From Chlorella sorokiniana (Eukaryota; Chlorophyta; Trebouxiophyceae; Chlorellales; Chlorellaceae), in the NCBI GenBank assembly GCA_025917655.1, contig CP084611.1, forward strand, positions 124,001 to 188,000: a stretch of DNA of 64,000 nucleotides. The letters run 5' to 3'. The notes under the pieces are model-generated. The model made no database searches. It was given only the letters and a program-made list of their open reading frames with translations, and had not been told where the DNA came from. Of the stretch, positions 42,998-64,000 are shown piece after piece (the stretch's first letter is position 1; every line of letters begins with the position of its first letter). The translations under genes were made by a program, and so were the position numbers.

Positions 42998-44569
42998 GGT
43001 GGGGAGAGGGGGTCACACTATGCTGCCGCTGGAGCGCAAACGTGTGGAGGTGGGTGGGGTGCCGCTGCGCCGCCAGCCTCTCCGTTGCCCTTGTTGTGCG
43101 CCGCTCATCCAAGCGAGTGGGGCTTGTCGAGTGTTGCTTGCCAGCGTTTGAGCAGGTTAGTGGCATGCACGGAACGGGCCCCAGCCTTGTGCCTTGCCCC
43201 GCCCATCCCCCTCCGCAGGCCATTGGCGGGCGTGTAGACTTTGCACGGTGCTGGCGCGTGATTGTGGACCCCGGCGGCGGCCGCCCGCCAGCGCCTGGCA
43301 GTGTCGCGGTGAGCGGGCAGCCGGCCATGCGTGCGGTGCCGTCGCCGCCTGTGGAGCCCCCGGCGGTTGCTCCGCGCCACCCGTGGCACGCTTTGCGATT
43401 GGCCCTGTAAAACCGCGGCACCTTGTGCAGTAGGTGCTCTCCCTCCCCAAGGCACACCGCCCTCCCCCAACCCCCAACCGATCCCAATCCCAGCCCCCAA
43501 CCCTCGCCAACCTGGTTGCTGCTCCCCTTTTACCCGCCAACAACAGGCTCTGTTGCCTCCCCATTGTATCACCCCGCCTCCCTCACCCTTGCCATCCCCC
43601 TCCATCCCCCAATCCCCAGCTCCTTTGGCGGCCCTCCTCTGTCTCTCACCCCGCCTCGCTCGCCCCTCCCCTCCTCCCCCTCCTTTCCAGCTCCTTTGGA
43701 GACCCCCGTTGTCTCACCCTGCCTCGCCCCCCCAGCTCCTTTGGAGACCCCGACTTCAAGGAGCCGCTGCACCTGGTCACCGCCACCCCAGACGTGATGC
43801 GGGAGCGGCTGCAGCCGGGGGACGAGTTTGTCATCCTCGCCTCGGACGGCCTGGTGCGCTGGGTGTTGGTGTTGGTGGGCGGGTGGGTGGGTGGGGTGGT
43901 GGTGTTGGTGGGCGGGTGGGTGGGTGGGGTGGGGTGGGGTGGGGTGGAGGGGGGTCGTCGCTGCCCGGTGAAGAGCTGGTTGCGTGGGTTGTGTGGAGGA
44001 GCTGGGGGAGTTGAGGTGGGTGTGCCGGATGCCAGGGATGCTGGGCACGCGTGGGTGGCAAAGGGAACCCAGCAGCAGATTGTGGAGGCTGGTTCGCATA
44101 GAGGGCGGGGGGGCGGGCCGTGTGCCAGCGTGGTATGGCCGCGGCCGGTTGAGCTGTCACACCAACACGCTCGCTCTGCCCAGCTGGGGCGACAGACTAC
44201 CAGACATCGCTCCTACGCGCGCCCCTCGCCCCCGCCCCCCCTTCCTCCACCCCCTCCACACACATGAACACACATACACATACCCCCACCCCCGCCCCCG
44301 CAGTGGGATGTGCTGTCAGACTCAGAGGCCTGTGCCGTCGTGCGGCGCCACCTGCAGCAGTCGGGCGCCCCCCGCCAGATCACGCCGCCCCAGCTGCTGC
44401 CCGGCGCCGCGCCTACGGCGCCTCGTCCTTTGCGGAGCAGCTGCGGCGGCCGCACGCGCCGACGGCGGCGCTGGCCACCGCGGCGGCGGAGCGCTTGGTG
44501 CAAGAGGCGCTTGATCGCGGTACCATGGACAACGTTACCGCTGTGGTGGGCTTGATGCAGTGGGACTGA
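39230..44569 (+). CDS. PP2C-family Ser/Thr phosphatase with N-terminal RS domain
   Basis: Metal-dependent phosphatase. Exons: 39230-39408, an RS-coding exon from about 39646 to 40641, 40923-41035, 41300-41410, 41737-41823, 42071-42194, 42406-42557, 42826-42947, 43219-43308, 43736-43853, 44304-44569. The N-terminal half is disordered: Ala/Pro leader, an RS domain ([20 protein letters not shown], then [12 protein letters not shown]), His runs, [28 protein letters not shown], and [12 protein letters not shown]. The catalytic half begins [20 protein letters not shown] and has [84 protein letters not shown] and [16 protein letters not shown], so the metal-binding aspartates are present. Exon phases join both halves (for example GACGACG to ACGAGG at 40641/40923), supporting one gene. 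It has a GC-AG intron after 42557. Frame breaks occur at 40052-40055 and other G/C runs. An RS region suggests nuclear-speckle targeting (inference). Confidence 0.83.
41426..41516. repeat. Short tandem repeat in PP2C intron
   Basis: Four imperfect copies of a roughly 20-23-bp unit built on GGTACCGCAGGCAGGGAG, starting near 41443, 41462, 41485 and 41508. It lies just after the donor at 41411. Confidence 0.75.
42958..42996. repeat. GT dinucleotide microsatellite in PP2C intron
   Basis: A (GT)n tract with a few T interruptions, close to the donor at 42948. Confidence 0.8.
43615..43749 (+). repeat. Tandem copies of a 3' splice site plus exon start (PP2C)
   Basis: The intron end and exon start CCCAG/CTCCTTTGGAGACCC occur three times: acceptors end at 43619, 43690 and 43735. 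Copies 2 and 3 share about 46 bases including TTGTCTCACCCTGCCTCGCC; copy 1 is more diverged. Only the third continues into the conserved [12 protein letters not shown] weaker fourth relative may lie near 43548. Confidence 0.8.
43861..43955 (+). repeat. G-rich minisatellite in PP2C intron
   Basis: Two copies of a unit containing GTGTTGGTGGGCGGGTGGGT followed by (GGGGT)n. The unit has four G triplets separated by single bases, fitting a G-quadruplex pattern on the transcript strand. It begins seven bases past the donor at 43853. Confidence 0.8.
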
Positions 44570-45000: not shown

Positions 45001-47212
45001 ATGATGATGGCGGCGGCGTTTCTCGCGCTGATCGAACCGATGGCGGCGGCCGCTGCCCCCGCCAGCCGACGGGCAGGTAAGCCCGGCCATGCTGCTGTCT
45101 GAACCCCACCCCACTTTCTCACGAATCACCGACACCAACGTGCTATACAGGGTGCTATCACAGAGCCAGGACGTGTCTGCGGCCATTGTCGGCGGTTCTA
45201 ACGCTCCAAAGGGCAGGTGGGCAGCGCCGCCGCCCGCGTGTCAGCCGGGCTCCCAGGCGGCGCAGCTGCAGCGGCAGAGCAGCGCCGCGTGTCGCGCCAT
45301 CATGCTGCTGCCCGTGCCCCCGCAGGTATCCCTACGCCGTCTCTCTGCGCCAGCGCAGCGGCATGCAGCTGCATTTCTGCGGAGGTGAGAGCCCTCGCTG
45401 GCTCGCCGCTCCCTCTTTGAGCTGGCTGTGCAAGCACAGGGCAACCAAGCTTGCCCCACCCCTTCTGGCCTCTCTCGAAATTCGCCGCTGCCGCTGCTGA
45501 GCACACTGCCGCCCCACATCACGGCATGCTTCTCAGCCGCCACAACGCCGTGCCAGTCACAGCCGCTGGGTGCTCTGTGTCGCCGCTGCAGGCTCGCTCA
45601 TCCACCGTCGCTTCGTCCTCACAGCGGCCCACGTGAGCTTCTCCCCTGCCGCTGCCGTGTGTTTGCGACGCGTCACAGCATTTTTGCACAGCATTCTAGC
45701 ACAGCTGGATGCCGCTGGGGAAGGGCCGCTGGCAAGTATGCTCTCAATCAAACGCAGCCAATGTCCAACCTCCCACCTGCCTCCCACCTGCCTCCCATCT
45801 GCTCCCCATAACAACTCAACAACTGCGCCTCATCGCCACCCGCAGTGCTTTTTCAAGGAGGACGGCACGCCGGCCGCCCGCTCCTTCCGGGCGCCGCTGG
45901 TTGGCAGCAGCCTCGTGTGGGGAGGATGGGGGGGCAGCGCTGCTGCTTGCGGCACCTTTCTGCGGCACGCCTCCTCTGCCTCCGGCCTGAGCCTTTACCG
46001 CCCCTCCGCTCTTTGCCGCCCGTCCGCCCTCACTAATCCCTTTGCCTGCCCCCTTCCCCACTCCCTTGCCGGTCCCCTCCTGTTGGCAGCTGCGCATAGG
46101 AGGGTACGTCAAGTATGGGTCAGACCCCGGGCACGAGACGCGCCGCACCGCCATGCTGCGCCCCCACCCCCAGTTCAGCCCCGAACGTATGAAAACGACG
46201 TGGCGCTGATCCTGCTGGACCGCCCCTCCGCCAAGCGGCCCATCGGCCTGCCCGCCGCCAGCACGGCGCCGGCGGCGCCCCCGGGACAGGTGCTCACGGC
46301 GATCGGCTGGGGGCTGCTGCGGCAGGGCGGCCCCACCGCTACAACCCTGCAGCAGGTGCGCTGTGCGCGATATGGGTGGCAGAGTATTCATTGTTGGATC
46401 TGTTGGGTGTGGGTGGGGGTGATGCTGCTGTACCGTGAGGGTGTGTTGGCGCTGGGGCTGGGGCTGGGGGAGCAGCAGCATGCGCTGGAAAGGGCACCCA
46501 GCAGCTCATTCAGTGCCTGGACCTGTCGCCTAGCAACCGCACTGCTCCCCGCACCCACCTACTCATTCCCCACCCATTTCCTCATCGCACGCAGGTGGGG
46601 CTGAAGCTGCGCGGCAACTCCGTGTGTCAGCAGTACATGCCAGCCGAGCGGTGGGGCCGCAACTCGTTCATGTGTGCGGGGGAGCCCGGCAGCGGGCGCG
46701 ACACCTGCGCCGGCGACTCGGGCTCCCCCTGCTGCGCCGCACCACCAAGGGCAAGCGGGCTTGGGACCTTCAGGCAAGGGGGCCTCGGCCAGGGGGTTGG
46801 GGCGGTTGGGGTTGGCGGATTGATGCCCCGGGTGCTGGGCAAGAATGGCAGGGGTTTGCGGGGCAGTTTGTGCGAACTGCTGCAAACTGCGTGTGGGCAG
46901 ACAGGGGACGAGCATCCACAGCGCTTCAGGCCCTGCCAGCAGCCTGCGGTCTGCGCCGCCTATAGAAAGGCAGCCGGCCCTGCCGCCACGCCCGCAGGTC
47001 GGCATCACCTCCTGGGGATACGCCTGCGCCGGCAGCCGCCCCGCAGTCTACACCAACGTGGCCCGCATGGCGCCCTGGATCAAGGCCCAGATGCGGGCGA
47101 TGCTCAAGGCGGAGCGCCGCCAGCAGCTGCGGCAGCGGCGGGGGCTGCTGGGGGCACAGTGCCTGCAGCTCTGGGCCTGGCGGGCGGCAACGGCACCGCC
47201 CTGGCGCAGTAG
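45001..47212 (+). CDS. Secreted trypsin-like serine protease (S1 family)
   Basis: Secreted or lumenal endopeptidase. Exons: 45001-45076, 45151-45216, 45326-45384, 45592-45632, 45846-45899, 46090-46354, 46595-46773, 46998-47212. A signal peptide starts at the triple ATG (MMMAAAFLALIEPMAAAAAP). The mature N-terminus is expected at IVGGSNAPKGRYPYAVSLRQ, the usual zymogen cleavage site. The catalytic triad is visible: His in RRFVLTAAHCFFKEDG, Asp in ENDVALILLDRP and Ser in DTCAGDSGSPLL. GITSWGYACAGSRPAVYTNV and APWIKAQM close the domain. The intron after 46773 has a GC donor (CAG then gcaagg). The C-terminal tail is Arg/Gln/Leu-rich and its stop is ambiguous: a frame break at G runs near 47140-47160 would give the stop at 47212, otherwise the frame runs to 47339. 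Cleavage preference for basic residues is likely but not proven. Confidence 0.85.
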
Positions 47213-57943: not shown

Positions 57944-60900
57944 TTACAAGGTCCGCCTCAAAAGGGAGCCTATGAGGTCAGCACAGCGCTCACCGGGTTC
58001 AGGCTGCGGCTGGTAGCGAAATGGCAAGTGGTCAACCGCAGCCGTGCGGCGTGTGCGGAGCTGGCGGGGTCGTATGGTCTCAAGCCGCGGCCAGCGGGCT
58101 GCCGCCCCAGAACGCTCCGATGCGCTGCTGGTCCCCCCAATTCGACCCCACTGGCGCTGTGCGGCCGCCTCGTTCTGTGCGGCGCCCTCTGCTGCCGCTG
58201 CTGCAGCCGCAGCATCCATCTGCGCCACCACCTGCAGCCACTCGCGGTTGTGTGCCTCAAACTTGAGGCGCCGCACGCTGGCGGCCCAGTCGGGGCTGGC
58301 TGCGGCCGCAGCGTCCAGCGCAGCGGCGGCCGCCCGCGCCAGCTGGCGGTGGCTGCTGCGCAGCAGCTCTGCCAGGCGAGCGGCCAGCTCTGGCCGGGCC
58401 AGCAGCGCGGCGCGGGGAGGGGGCTTGCGCCAGCAGGCGTGTCGCCGCAGAGGTCGCGACCAGCAGGGACTCATCCTGCTCCTCCTCCTTCCCACCGTCC
58501 AGCAGCAGGGCGTGCAGGGGGCAGCCTGCACGGGCGCACGGGAAAGGCACCTCCCACACCTCGGCAGCCATGCATCCATGCGGCCATGCAGATTGCGTCT
58601 GCAGCGTCTACACAGGTGCGTGCGTGCGCCGACTGCTGGCACAGCACTGCTCCGCTGCCATGCTGCAGCGCCACACTACACAAGCAGCACAAGCCACGGC
58701 ACCCCATCCCGGGCGATCGAACCACGCAAAGATCCTGGGTCCCAGCTGCGCTCACCAGGCCGGCTGCCACCAGCATCTCGGCACACGCGTCGTCAGCGCA
58801 CATCACCCCAACCGCAGACATGCAGTCCAGCAGCGAGGTGTGGGCCGCGGCGCCGTCGCTGCCGCCGCGTGCCGCCGCCGTCGCCAGCTGACCGGCCAGG
58901 GTGGCGAGGAAGGCGGGCAGCTGGGTGGAAGCCAGCAGGGACGCGTAAGCGAAGCCGGGGACGTGCAGCCGGGCGAGGCACGCCAGCACCGCGCGCAGCG
59001 CGGGCGGCGGCAGCTCCCAGCGCGTCAGCAGCGCGGCGAGCGCGGCAGCGCAGGTGCAAAGCGTGCGCGCAGCGGCTCCGACTCGTGCGCTGCCAGCTGG
59101 CGCAGCAGCGCCCACAGCGCAGCATCCTCCGCCCACGGCCCCGCGCCGCTGGCCCTGCCCCCGCCTCCACCCCCTGTGCCTTTCCCTCGGCCGCTGCCTC
59201 TGCTGAGAGTTGTGCCTCTTCGGCTCCCTCCCCGCCCTCGGCCGCTGCCTCTGGAGGGGCCTCTGCCGCTCGCCGCGCTTAGGGTTGCCTGCTGCTGCTT
59301 CTGGTCCGCCGACTGGTGCTACCGTAGCACTTCCACCCTCAGCACCCCTACCCTGGCTATCGGCGCCTGCCTCCAGAGGCGGCTCAGCGGGACCCACCGC
59401 CATCTCCACCAGCTGCTCCAGCCGCCCGCGCGGGCCATCTCTCTCGGCTACCCGGCAGCTGCCTGCCAGGCTGGCCATCAGCGCCGCCAGCTGGGGGCAG
59501 GAGGCCAGCAGCGGCGTGCGGGAGGACAGCAGCATGGCGTGCAGGCACGGGAGGGCGTCTGCGCGGCAGACGGGGGCGTTTTGGGCACTCGTCAGGCCTT
59601 CACACTGTGCCGGGTGGGAGCCCTGACGCCTTCCGTGTTGAGCCAGGAGCACAACCAAACGTTCTCATTCTGGCGGTGCCTCGCCACGCTCAAGGCCAAG
59701 CACATCCTGCCCTCATCCCCCCCTTCCCACACCCACACACCCACCTGAGCGCAGGAACATGGTGCGGTGCTTATCCAGCAGGGACAGGTTGTGCAGCAGG
59801 CCCAGGGCCAGCTGCAAGGGGCTGGGCTCGGCGCCAGCTCCCGCAGCTCCTCTCCCCCAGCCGCCGCCCCCACCGCTGCATGCTGACGCGCCGCCCGCGT
59901 CTGCGTCGCTGGCAGGCAGCGCCGGCAGCAGGGCGGCCACGCGGGCGATCGTCCCCGCCGCCGCTATCTGGCCCCGCATGCCCTCGTCGCACGACAGGCT
60001 GTGCAGCAGTTTGAGCAGGGGTGCCAGCAGGCGGCGGCCGTCCTCGCCATCGCCGCTGCCCACCGCCTCTACCTCGTCAGCGCCCGGCAGCAGGGCCGCG
60101 AGGGGCGCCGCCAAGCCCGCCTCCCGCAGCGCCGCCGCGTGCTCACAGGGGGAGGGAGAGGCGGTGCAGGAAGGAGACCGCCAGGAGCAGCAGAGGGGGC
60201 TGCCTCGCTCCAGCAGCGGGCACAGCAGGCCCAGCAGCCCCTGCGGGCGTTGCAAGCACACGCGGCTGCCCATCAGGGGAAGGAAACGATACTAGCCCCC
60301 TCCCATCCCCATCCCATCACAGCATCGCACACAGTGTAGATCAAAGAATGCAGCCGGGCCATCTGCGACGGCCAGCTCCACACTTGCTGGAACGCTACCA
60401 CTCAGGCGCCGCCTTAGTTTCCTTGTGGCATCCCCGCCCCGTCAGACTCGGTGCAAACCCCGGAAAGCAACCTAGAGCTTGAGGAGCATTTCCGCAGCAC
60501 CGCACCTTGTTCACCATCTTCTGCTGCACCGCTGGCACCTCCCCCAGGCTGAGCAGCAGCGCCAGCGCCAGCCGCAGCAGCGGCTCCTGCCGCGCCAGCG
60601 CCGCCGCCAGCCCCCGCTCCGCTGGCGCCAGCGGCTGCCGCCGAAGCAGGCGCGTCCCCAGGGTCGCCACCGCCGCGCCGGCCTGCTGCGCCCAGTGGGC
60701 TGTGCGGCGGCCCTCCAGCTCCAGTAGGTCCATGGTGAGAGCCCCCACCTGGTTCTGTCACAGGGGAAGTGGAAACCCGCCGATTGCGACATGCCCCCAA
60801 AACATGATCCCGGTGATGGCTTAGTTGCCATGGCAGCTGAAGAGGCGGCGAGCTTGTGCCAGGCGCTAGCCGCAATCACAATGCGAATCACAGCCACCCA

Positions 60901-62230
60901 CGGCAAAATCACTTCCACAGCAGCCTGTGGCTGGAAGCGGCTTTGCTGCCCGTTTTGCGGCGTGCAGCTGCGCAACCGCCGACAGGGCCAACACCTCCCC
61001 ACCCCAGTATGCTTAAAGGCTGCTCTAGTAAGATTTCACCTGGGCCAGAAGCGGGTGGGCCGCCGCCACCCGCGACAGCGCCAGGAAGGTCGACAGCAGG
61101 GCGGCAGCCAGGTCGGCGCCCCGCCGCGCCTCCTCTCGCAGCAGGCGCGCCAGGGCCGGCAGCAGGGTGGGGTGCGCCAGCAGCGGCAGCAGGCAGGCGG
61201 GGTCCGCAGCGAGCTGCGCCACGGCGGCCGCCGCGGCGGTCTTGGGGGCAGGCTCTCCTCGTACAGAGCTTCCTGCGCAGCATTGGATGGTGGGGTTTCG
61301 GCTGTGCAGCAGCCCATTGTCTCATCACGGTCCAGCTGGCTGCCGTCGGCGCAACAAACGGCAATCGCCCGCGGTGGAGCAGCAGCGGCGGCACATGAGT
61401 AACACTGCTGGTGAAGCAAGGTTGGAACAGCTCGCAAAAAGAAGTCCGAACAGCAAGCCTGAATGTTGCTGGGCGGCAGGCGCCTACCAGGTAATCCTCC
61501 AGGAGGTCCAGGCTGGCTGTGGCGGCTGCCGCCCTGAGCGCTGCTGCCGCTGCCGCCAGCGCGCGCTGCTGCTCCTCGCGCAGCAGCTGGCGGTCCTGCT
61601 CAGTGACTTGTCGCGATAGGGCCGCGTGTTGCGGCGCTGCGGCGTCGCCATCTGGCGACACCCGGGCACTAGGCCCCAGGTCGAGCTGCTGGGGCTGTCG
61701 CTCAGGCTCCAGCTGGTGCTGCCGCCGCGCCCGCTCGAGCAGCTCGTGCACCTCTGCCAGGCGTGACGCATGCAGGAGCTTGCTTCCCTCTACGATGTGT
61801 TGTGCTGCCGCTGCAAGATCGGCGTCCTCAAGGAGGCCGAGCTTTATCCTGCAGCGACAGAGAAGAGGAAATCAGGGTTCAAGCACAAAGCAAGCGGGCA
61901 TGCCGCCGCGCCGGTCGCTGCACCCACCGCTTTACGCCTTGTTTGGTGGACTGCAGGAGCTCTTGGCCATTTGGGAGGACCGCTATCTCTTGGCTCTGCG
62001 GAATGGGCGTTCAAAGAGAACGGGTCGAGGTTGCAGTTCCCGCAAGCTGCGGGAATGGGAGCCTTGCCGCCTACCTCGTAATGGACCTCCAACGCCCTGC
62101 CATCAGCAGCAAGTTCGATTTCCCCGGGCCGCACCTGTGCAGCCAGAGAAACAGAGCGCTGTTGGCAGCCGCAACAGAGGAGGAGTAGCGCCACTCAGCA
62201 ATTGCGCACCTTCTTATGAATGGAGGACAT
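57944..62230 (-). CDS. Kinesin-associated protein KAP (kinesin-II accessory subunit, FLA3/KIFAP3 homologue)
   Basis: Armadillo-repeat subunit that links heterotrimeric kinesin-II to cargo; in Chlamydomonas it drives anterograde intraflagellar transport. Exons: 62230-62210 (MSSIHKK), 62134-62075, 61995-61928, 61848-61488, 61272-61040, 60754-60506, 60240-59745, 59558-58756, 58525-57944. Family-diagnostic pieces in order: GEIELAADGRALEVHYE, HIVEGSKLLHASRLAEVHEL, the coiled SRQVTEQDRQLLREEQQRAL, LYEESLPP, then ARM-like VAQLAADPACLLPLLAHPTL, VGALTMDLLELEGRRTAHWA, LARQEPLLRLALALLLSLGE, ALGLLHNLSLLDKHRTMFLR, LLDCMSAVGVMCADDACAEM, CPLHALLLDG and the C-terminal PDWAASVRRLKFEAHNREWL. Splice phases join cleanly at the first four junctions. 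The stop at 57944 overlaps a TGTAA and may not be the true end. Frame breaks at G/C runs in 59558-58756 and 58525-57944. The first coding exon is only 21 nt. Confidence 0.88.
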
Positions 62231-62454: not shown

Positions 62455-64000
62455 CTACTTGCGCCGCGCTCGCTTGCCCGCCTGCGAGGGCTCCACCACT
62501 TTCAGCACCTCGGCACGCAGGCCTGCATCGTTGAGCGCATGCATCCAGGCCGTCTGCTGGCTGGACAGGCGGTCGCGTGGGCCCTTCACCTCCGCCAGCT
62601 TGGCATCCCGCTTGGCGGGCGCCAGAGCAGCAGGTCGGGCATGCCGCCTGCGGGAGTCGCAGGGGGCCAGCGAGGCAGGTATGGCACATGAGCATGCTGC
62701 CAGTTTTGACCAAATAATCTGGCAAGCGGGATGACAAAACGGCAGCTGGGTGCTGACACAAACAACAGCCGCAGGCGCCCCTTCCGCCGCCACCTCACCC
62801 GACCAACCAGCGTGGTCGGTCGCCAGCAGGCGCATCACGGCGGCCAGGCCGCGCCCCCACACACTCCGCCACCTGCTGCAGCTCCTCCAGAGTGTGCCGG
62901 TCCCAGCTGACGCCGCGGCACATCACACCGCGGTGCTGCTCCCAGGCCAGCCGCAGCAGGCGGGGGCCTCGCCGGGCGGCGATGCGCTGCAGGCAGCCCT
63001 CCACCGCTTCCTACACCGGCGGCAGGCTTGAAACCTACGTGAAGCAAAATGCTACAAGTGCAGAGCACGCCTGCGTGCAAGCAAAGCTAGCATTGCTGCC
63101 GGCCCAGCACAGCTGTGGGGCGGTGCATTTCACCGACTGGAGACGGCTGCCTGGGCGCTGCCTGACCGGGGGCTCCTCCCCAGCGCAGCTGGCAGCACAT
63201 GGCGGCAGGGGCGCAGCGCCCATCAGGGGATCACCTTGCGAGTGGGGTAGAAGGAGGGGGAGTTGAGGTCCAGCGGCGCGGTCTGCGCGGGGACAACACA
63301 GCCACAGCTAAAGCGCGAGCTGGAGGCACCTGGCCCGCTGGTCCGGACTGAGTGCATGCATGGGCACGCCTCGCTTGATGCGACTGCCCGCTGCGCGTCT
63401 TGCAGCCGTCGGCGGTCCGTGCGCGGCGCAGAAGCGCGGCATGCATGCCACCACAACCGCTGTGTGCCAAGCTCAAGGGAACACCACATCAGACCCCTTC
63501 GCCGCCCCAACCCCAGTTCACTGCTCAACGCCCCCACCCACCCACTTCTGGCCCTTCCACCCCTCAAGCAACCAAACAGCCTACCAGCCCACCCGGCTGC
63601 CAGCCACCCAGGCAACCCACCTGGAAGGGGGTGCGGAACACGTCGGGCACCGGCATGAAGAGCGCATCCCACAGCAGCAGGCCAAACAGGGTGGCCCACA
63701 CGCCGCCCTCGCTGCAAGCGGGAGAGGGTCAGGTGAGCAGGGGTGGAAGGTGCGTGCGTGGTGATATTGTGGAGGTGTGGGTAGCGTGTGGGTGTGCGCG
63801 CGTGTGTGTGTGTGTGTGTGGCCCCCATACCCTTCCCCTGCCCACCCAAACGCCAGCAAGGTAACAGCCGCGGACCACCATAGGCAACGACACACACGCC
63901 AAACCCGCCTGCCCACCTGTGCACCCGCGCCACCCGCCGCCCTCCTGGCTGGCGTAGTACTGCAGGGCCAGCGCCTCCACCCCCACCTGCTCGTCGTCCA
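62455..64000 (-). CDS. FAN1: FAN1-type structure-specific nuclease, VRR-NUC domain (partial, C-terminal part)
   Basis: DNA repair nuclease that cuts branched DNA at interstrand crosslinks. Exons within the window: 64000-63917, 63711-63621, 63282-63235, 63010-62799, 62647-62455; the N-terminal part lies beyond the right edge. FAN1-specific blocks in order: VEALALQYYASQEG, EGGVWATLFGLLLWDALFMP with VPDVFRTPFQ, TAPLDLNSPSFYPTRK, EGCLQRIAARRG, HRGVMCRGVSWDRHTLEELQ and MRLLATDHAGWSG. The VRR-NUC PD-(D/E)XK core is GMPDLLLWRPP then AKLAEVKGPRDRLSSQQTAW, followed by ALNDAGLRAEVLKVVEP. It ends in a basic tail (AGKRARRK). The intron before 63010 uses a TAG acceptor instead of CAG. One frame break lies between GMPDLLLW and EVKG. 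It sits 224 bases upstream of KAP in the same direction. Any N-terminal UBZ or SAP domain cannot be seen here. Confidence 0.9.
63795..63822. repeat. GT dinucleotide microsatellite in FAN1 intron
   Basis: A run of GT units with one GC interruption, in the intron between the exons at 63917 and 63711. Confidence 0.8.

What the first reader, a model, noticed from the sequence alone, without database searches (positions are those of the whole stretch)
57944..62230. Kinesin-II accessory subunit KAP, an intraflagellar transport gene, in a Chlorella-like genome
The order and identity of blocks (ALEVHYE, HIVEGSKLLHASRLAEVHEL, LYEESLPP, MDLLELEGRR, LARQEPLLRLALALLLSLGE, KFEAHNREWL) match KAP end to end. 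KAP has a known job only with kinesin-II, mostly in cilia. If the host is a coccoid trebouxiophyte with no described swimming stage, a maintained full-length KAP argues for a hidden flagellate or gamete stage or for a non-ciliary kinesin-II role. The host identity is my inference.
Basis: partly seen in the sequence, partly recalled or inferred. Interest (0 to 1): 0.7.

Follow-up and report, generated by a model that had tools for sequence, protein, structure and literature searches.

The report
KAP gene in Chlorella-like alga
A green alga close to Chlorella, which is not known to make swimming cells, carries the gene for KAP, a helper part of the motor that builds cilia, plus a reduced kit of partner genes that seems to have kept the outbound half of the transport line and lost the return half.

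Summary
The gene is real and it is KAP. On the minus strand at 62230-57944, nine exons read collinearly as KAP (Pfam 1.6e-55; PDB KAP3 2.4e-47). As assembled, the frame breaks at eight places. Sequencing error is likely: C/G runs pile up at length 5 and drop at 6, and six other kinesin loci change frame too, though only three of nine such sites hold a run. The host is near Chlorella: a CP26 exon is 103/113 identical to 8bd3 (C. ohadii) and 88/112 to 6kac (Chlamydomonas, recalled). The genome also has a kinesin-2 motor, IFT88, IFT52 and IFT144, probably IFT57, kinesin-9B and two axonemal dynein heavy chains. No third dynein heavy chain, so no dynein-2, and no match to IFT172 or IFT140 queries. 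Cryptic sex and cilium genes in Chlorella are already in print, with most IFT genes said to be missing. The new part is a kept outbound set without the return half. Expression, selection on KAP and species were not tested.

The parts
57944..62230 (-). KAP (kinesin-2 accessory subunit) gene, nine exons, eight GT..AG introns, 958 aa when eight frame breaks are read through with N
62210..62230 (-). exon 1, MSSIHKK
62075..62134 (-). exon 2, VRPGEIELAADGRALEVHYE
61928..61995 (-). exon 3
61488..61848 (-). exon 4, holds HIVEGSKLLHASRLAEVHEL; alone Pfam KAP profile 45-87, E 0.022, under the cut-off
61040..61272 (-). exon 5, alone Pfam KAP profile 139-208, 30.9 bits, over the cut-off; frame break near 61248 at a run of five C
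60506..60748 (-). exon 6, VGALTMDLLELEGRR...MVNK; alone Pfam KAP profile 208-289, 23 bits, under the cut-off
59745..60240 (-). exon 7, repeat region; no Pfam match alone; frame breaks near 60199 and 60152, both at runs of five C
58756..59558 (-). exon 8, repeat region with a low-complexity insert; no KAP match alone; three frame breaks (about 59260, 59162, 59060), only the 59162 one at a run of five
57944..58525 (-). exon 9, C-terminal repeats and KFEAHNREWL block (alone Pfam KAP profile 614-677, E 0.0018), divergent tail, stop; frame breaks near 58521 and 58423 at runs of five C

Best explanation
This is the true KAP gene of a Chlorella-family alga. KAP binds a kinesin-2 motor and helps it pull IFT-B trains that carry axoneme parts outward into a flagellum. 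The eight frame breaks are sequencing errors and not decay. The genome keeps an outbound kit (kinesin-2, KAP, IFT88, IFT52, probably IFT57, and IFT144 of IFT-A), axonemal outer-arm dynein alpha and gamma chains, and kinesin-9B. It has lost the return motor (dynein-2 heavy chain) and, as far as tested, IFT140 and IFT172, which organise the turn and the return. I infer that the alga builds a short-lived motile flagellum, most likely on a rarely formed gamete, by mainly one-way IFT. Shown: identity of KAP, the partner genes, the two dynein heavy chain loci. Inferred: that the frame is intact in the cell, that the genes are expressed together, that the losses are real, the gamete stage.
For: KAP identity. 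Frame breaks as errors: C/G runs of five 303 seen, 200 expected, runs of six 34 seen, 65 expected; 683 and 79 in 190 kb of 20 other loci; short-gap frame changes at nine sites in six other kinesin loci, among them the LGGN motif of L032 and L041 with five G where six are needed. Kinesin-2: neck (motif recalled), tree support 0.85, top five PDB sequences all kinesin-2, KIF3B 305 bits against 214 for the best other class. IFT144 6.4e-53 to PDB IFT144; IFT88 in five and IFT52 in three collinear pieces, reciprocal matches; IFT57 1.1e-8. Dynein: two domain searches and a DYNC2H1 segment ring at the same two loci, alpha and gamma outer-arm type from 70- and 49-residue stretches. IFT172 (961 residues) and IFT140 (289) gave no match in the search where IFT88, IFT52 and IFT144 did. 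IFT172 and the switch to return trains: PMC13290226, passages.
Against: No transcript, protein or microscopy evidence. No dN/dS for KAP: no relative's DNA was at hand. Two of eight KAP frame breaks are not at runs of five, and in other kinesin loci only three of nine frame-change sites hold such a run (1035 of 5000 random 60-base stretches do), so the run effect alone does not explain the breaks. Only one motor with the canonical kinesin-2 neck was found in 20 of 21 loci, whereas Chlamydomonas needs two different ones (PMC7652414, passages). IFT144, an IFT-A part, kept in two copies does not fit a plain loss of the return half. IFT57 is one bit under its cut-off, was not checked reciprocally, and the same family rang below the cut-off in 7 of 14 control genomes. 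The losses rest on one error-prone assembly searched exon by exon; IFT172 and IFT140 were queried in part; one of 19 candidates was not scored; PF23387 gave nothing and had no positive control. A lone axonemal dynein survives without cilia in Ostreococcus lucimarinus (PMC6529398, passages), so axonemal dynein genes do not prove a flagellum.
Confidence: 0.6

Rival explanations
1. The kinesin-2/KAP pair has been kept for a non-ciliary job, such as vesicle transport or division, and the IFT genes serve in that too.
For: [quoted passage not shown] C. variabilis and Coccomyxa were never seen with cilia, some IFT proteins have cytoplasmic roles, and Ostreococcus lucimarinus, without cilia, keeps one axonemal dynein that may be repurposed (PMC6529398, passages). 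Dynein-2 was not found.
Against: Two outer-arm dynein heavy chains, kinesin-9B and several IFT genes are in the same genome; together they are, to my knowledge, used in motile cilia.
Confidence: 0.2
2. The alga has the complete two-way IFT set and the missing parts are gaps or errors of this assembly.
For: The assembly carries many indels. IFT172 and IFT140 were only partly queried; one of 19 candidates was not scored. PF23387 had no positive control.
Against: 15 contigs for 38.8 Mb. Two independent dynein domains and a DYNC2H1 segment find the same two loci and nothing else. Between human and the PDB chain IFT172 is at least as well conserved as IFT88 (1648 bits over 1721 aa against 575 over 709), yet only IFT88 rang.
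Confidence: 0.15
3. KAP here is a decaying relic (pseudogene) left from a recent loss of cilia.
For: Eight frame breaks as assembled, two not at runs of five. One IFT144 copy has no C-terminal match.
Against: Frame changes are found in six other kinesin loci too and run lengths are distorted genome-wide. All eight introns keep GT..AG and the codon pattern is strong, GC at positions 1, 2, 3 of 0.82, 0.55, 0.81. The two IFT144 copies differ with dN/dS 0.35 over 141 codons (Fisher p 0.004 or 0.015 by rounding).
Confidence: 0.05

Closest known systems
KAP / KAP3 / FLA3, accessory subunit of heterotrimeric kinesin-2
   Same: Collinear match from the N-terminal block to the HNxxWL block near the C-terminus; armadillo-type repeats; a kinesin-2 motor in the same genome
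   Different: A low-complexity insert in the repeat region, a divergent tail, and no clear second kinesin-2 motor
Reduced ciliary gene sets of Chlorella variabilis and C. vulgaris (CiliaCut; Blanc 2010, Cecchin 2019)
   Same: Chlorella-family host, outer-arm dynein genes kept, no cilia seen
   Different: Printed accounts say C. variabilis lacks most or all IFT genes (PMC12636532, PMC6529398); here kinesin-2, KAP and three to four IFT genes are present. Blanc 2010 was not held, so its own gene list was not seen
Centric diatoms, flagellate only as male gametes
   Same: Reduced IFT; for Thalassiosira pseudonana loss of IFT-A and BBSome with IFT-B kept was put forward (PMC5654045, passages)
   Different: Leptocylindrus danicus keeps IFT140, IFT172 and dynein-2 (PMC5654045); here these were not found while IFT144 was

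Membership tests
KAP (PF05804) | Pfam KAP score over the curated cut-off of 25.6 bits | tested here: met
   30.9 bits for one exon alone, 189 bits for the joined reading
KAP (PF05804) | Collinear similarity over the whole length, not only a shared armadillo repeat | tested here: met
   query 5-866 to 9w9h_C 10-688 in four pieces, the third very weak; armadillo hits not named KAP at most 21 bits
KAP (PF05804) | A kinesin-2 motor to bind, in the same genome | tested here: met
KAP (PF05804) | Continuous open reading frame | tested here: inconclusive
   broken at eight places as assembled; errors likely but not proven
KAP (PF05804) | Physical binding to the motor tail and a role in IFT | not testable with these tools
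   needs biochemistry or imaging
Heterotrimeric kinesin-2 | Two different kinesin-2 motor subunits | tested here: inconclusive
   one clear motor (L033); L048 groups as sister with support 0.85 but has another neck; 20 of 21 loci examined
Bidirectional IFT system | IFT-B core | tested here: met
   IFT88 and IFT52, IFT57 probable; other members not searched
Bidirectional IFT system | Dynein-2 heavy chain | tested here: not met
   only two dynein heavy chain loci, both closest to axonemal outer-arm chains
Bidirectional IFT system | IFT-A complex and IFT172 | tested here: inconclusive
   IFT144 present; partial IFT140 and IFT172 queries without match; PF23387 empty without control

The most novel reading that the evidence does not exclude
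A Chlorella-family alga builds a flagellum with one-way IFT: kinesin-2 with KAP, IFT-B and IFT144 carry parts out, while dynein-2, IFT140 and IFT172 are gone, so trains are not walked back. Only a two-headed outer dynein arm (alpha and gamma) drives the axoneme. This would be a natural test of whether retrograde IFT is dispensable for short-lived motile flagella.
Probability: 0.35. Interest if true: 0.75.

Novelty: new variant of a known kind. Interest (0 to 1): 0.5.

Why it matters
Whether Chlorella has a hidden sexual, flagellate stage has been open since its meiosis and cilium genes were described in 2010. A kept kinesin-2/KAP/IFT-B set makes the question testable: tag or follow these genes and look. 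If the return half of IFT is truly lost while the outbound half is kept, it would show which part of IFT a short-lived motile flagellum really needs.

Tried and rejected
Another armadillo family: rejected, PDB armadillo designs score at most 21 bits against 165 and 60 for the two KAP entries. Host as Chlamydomonas-like: rejected on the CP26 exon, 103/113 to 8bd3 against 88/112 to 6kac. Species name: not reached. The 18S family search did not complete, and a recalled 18S start of 130 bases gave nothing (the tool skips very common words and says an empty answer shows nothing). A paper search for a 38.8 Mb assembly: none of the 30 rows listed of 543 held that size. PF23387 for IFT80/IFT172: empty, no positive control, not used as evidence of absence. 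dN/dS for KAP: not possible, no relatives held; the two IFT144 copies were used instead. Run-length collapse as the only cause of frame changes: not borne out, three of nine sites in other kinesin loci. Structure prediction and fold search were not run. In one search the last frame break was bridged with one N and gave the wrong frame; one search used two.
Full report
Observation. On its minus strand, from the ATG at 62230 to the stop at 57944, nine exons separated by eight GT..AG introns read as KAP, the accessory subunit of kinesin-2. Of six exon pieces scanned alone, four hit Pfam KAP in collinear order (profile 45-87 at E 0.022, 139-208 at 1.1e-7, 208-289 at 2.7e-5, 614-677 at 0.0018), one of them over the cut-off; two gave no KAP match. 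The joined reading scores 189 bits, E 1.6e-55, and matches PDB 'Kinesin-associated protein 3' at 2.4e-47 in four collinear pieces, the third very weak. The genome-wide Pfam KAP search returned one match, here, and none in 14 control genomes. PDB armadillo hits not named KAP score at most 21 bits.

The frame is broken at eight places. I bridged them with N and restored no base. Six sit at runs of five C or G, though I placed them by eye; two do not. The window has 303 C/G runs of length five and 34 of length six, against 200 and 65 expected from a first-order model. In 190 kb of 20 other loci of the same genome the numbers are 683 and 79. In those kinesin loci a scan for frame changes over gaps too short for an intron gave 13 rows, nine distinct sites by my reading, in six loci; three sites hold a run of five, among them the LGGN motif of L032 and L041, where five G stand and six are needed. 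Since 1035 of 5000 random 60-base stretches hold such a run, runs are not the only cause: the assembly carries indels more widely. The KAP breaks are probably of that kind. Only accurate reads can settle it.

Host. The genome has many light-harvesting genes (41 matches). A CP26 exon (L057) is 103 of 113 identical to PDB 8bd3_S and 88 of 112 to 6kac. A paper listing (PMC10416949, title and hit counts only) ties 8bd3 to Chlorella ohadii photosystem II; that 6kac, 7kzm, 8bda and 8bd7 are from Chlamydomonas is recalled. The host is thus near Chlorella. The species stays unknown.

Partners. Pfam Kinesin rings at 78 pieces that I group into 21 loci. Of the 20 fetched, L033 has the kinesin-2 neck NKPKVNEDPK/DALLREFQAEI (motif recalled), groups with KIF17, KIF3A and KIF3B (support 0.85; 14 human motors recalled), and has KIF3B, OSM-3 (two sequences), KIF3C and 2vvg 'Kinesin-2' as its top five PDB sequences, 305 to 241 bits, against 214 for the next class. 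L048 is sister to kinesin-2 (0.85) with another neck. L032 is kinesin-9B (0.998); PMC5795050 (passages) says kinesin-9 is present in organisms with motile flagella. The locus C1:2437372-2437910 was not examined.

IFT genes. Pfam TPR_IF140-IFT172 rings at C1:700052 and C1:679054 (below the cut-off in 1 of 14 controls). The first is IFT144, 6.4e-53 to 8bda_I; the second is a copy, 87% identical over 2.2 kb, with no C-terminal match. IFT57 rings at C2:2765129-2765278 (1.1e-8, 39 bits, one under the cut-off) with a weak collinear piece beside it (0.159); the same family rang below the cut-off in 7 of 14 controls, and I did no reciprocal check, so IFT57 is probable only. A joined query of 2683 residues gave 16 matches: IFT88 at C2:1212651-1215178 (five collinear pieces), IFT52 at C2:1926502-1927640 (three), IFT144 (four, at both places) and the DYNC2H1 segment (four, at the two dynein loci below), but nothing for IFT172 (961 residues) or IFT140 (289 residues); one of 19 candidates was not scored. 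Reciprocal checks: L058 to 8bd7_A IFT88, 102 bits over its whole length, second to a designed repeat protein; L059 to IFT52, 48 bits, all three hits IFT52 (one of them recorded as 'Osm-6-like protein'). PF23387 gave nothing and had no control.

Dyneins. Two domains, PF12774 (10 matches; rings below the cut-off in 4 of 14 controls) and PF08393 (11 matches; 0 of 14), and the DYNC2H1 segment all ring at the same two loci, C7 about 1.02 Mb and C13 about 0.97 Mb, and nowhere else. A 70-residue stretch of the first is closest to the outer-arm alpha heavy chain (132 bits, next 108). A 49-residue stretch of the second is closest to the gamma chain (82 bits, DNAH5 80). So no dynein-2 and no inner-arm heavy chain was found.

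How it works, most likely. KAP joins the kinesin-2 motor and lets it pull IFT-B trains outward to build a flagellum. The kept axonemal dyneins and kinesin-9B point to a motile flagellum. Dynein-2 is the return motor, and IFT172 binds IFT144 in outward trains and IFT140 in return trains (PMC13290226, passages). Loss of dynein-2, IFT140 and IFT172 together would leave mainly outward transport. In Chlamydomonas FLA10 alone binds KAP but probably not the IFT complex (PMC7652414, passages), so a single motor would be a further change. Against this: nothing shows expression; IFT144, kept twice, is an IFT-A part; and Ostreococcus lucimarinus keeps one axonemal dynein without cilia (PMC6529398, passages). 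The two IFT144 copies differ with dN/dS 0.35 over 141 codons (Fisher p 0.004 or 0.015 by rounding), which suggests constraint on at least one copy.

What is known. PMC12636532 (sections 6 and 14 read, passages elsewhere) says that Blanc et al. 2010 found dynein arm genes in C. variabilis but most or all IFT, radial spoke and central pair genes missing. PMC6529398 (passages) says C. variabilis and Coccomyxa keep outer-arm parts, lack most of IFT, and were never seen with cilia. PMC6972661 (passages) finds 114 of 195 CiliaCut genes (58.4%) in C. vulgaris and proposes flagellate gametes; PMC12636532 counts 38.5% for the same species. The rows listed (11 of 12; 25 of 37; 20 of 438; 12 of 22; 6 of 495; 4 of 5) showed no paper that, by title and abstract start, describes kinesin-2, KAP or IFT88 in Chlorella; this is no proof that none exists.

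Verdict. KAP identity is firm. The hidden-flagellum idea is old. The new and testable part is a kept outbound IFT set with the return half not found.

Noticed in passing
L052 (G000:C1:698552-701959) and L053 (G000:C1:677554-680949): IFT144 is present twice about 21 kb apart, 87% identical over 2.2 kb; no C-terminal match was found for the L053 copy
   Followed up: partly
whole window and 20 other loci: C/G runs pile up at length five and are rare at six, and frame changes occur in other kinesin loci, three of nine sites at such runs: an indel-rich assembly
   Followed up: yes
62455-62922 (-): VRR-NUC nuclease domain next to KAP, E 1e-9; looks like the end of a FAN1-type nuclease (name recalled)
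   Followed up: no
45501-46601 (+): Trypsin-like protease exon, E 8.5e-12
   Followed up: no
43434-44264 (+): PP2C phosphatase exon, E 8.2e-6
   Followed up: no
L048 (G000:C5:2381500-2391000): Kinesin that is sister to kinesin-2 in the tree but has the neck VNEDLDHRTLLRKYERELRRLRAEL; class not settled
   Followed up: partly
G000:C7 about 1.02 Mb and G000:C13 about 0.97 Mb: Only two dynein heavy chain loci found in the genome, outer-arm alpha and gamma types by short stretches; no beta, inner-arm or dynein-2 chain found
   Followed up: partly
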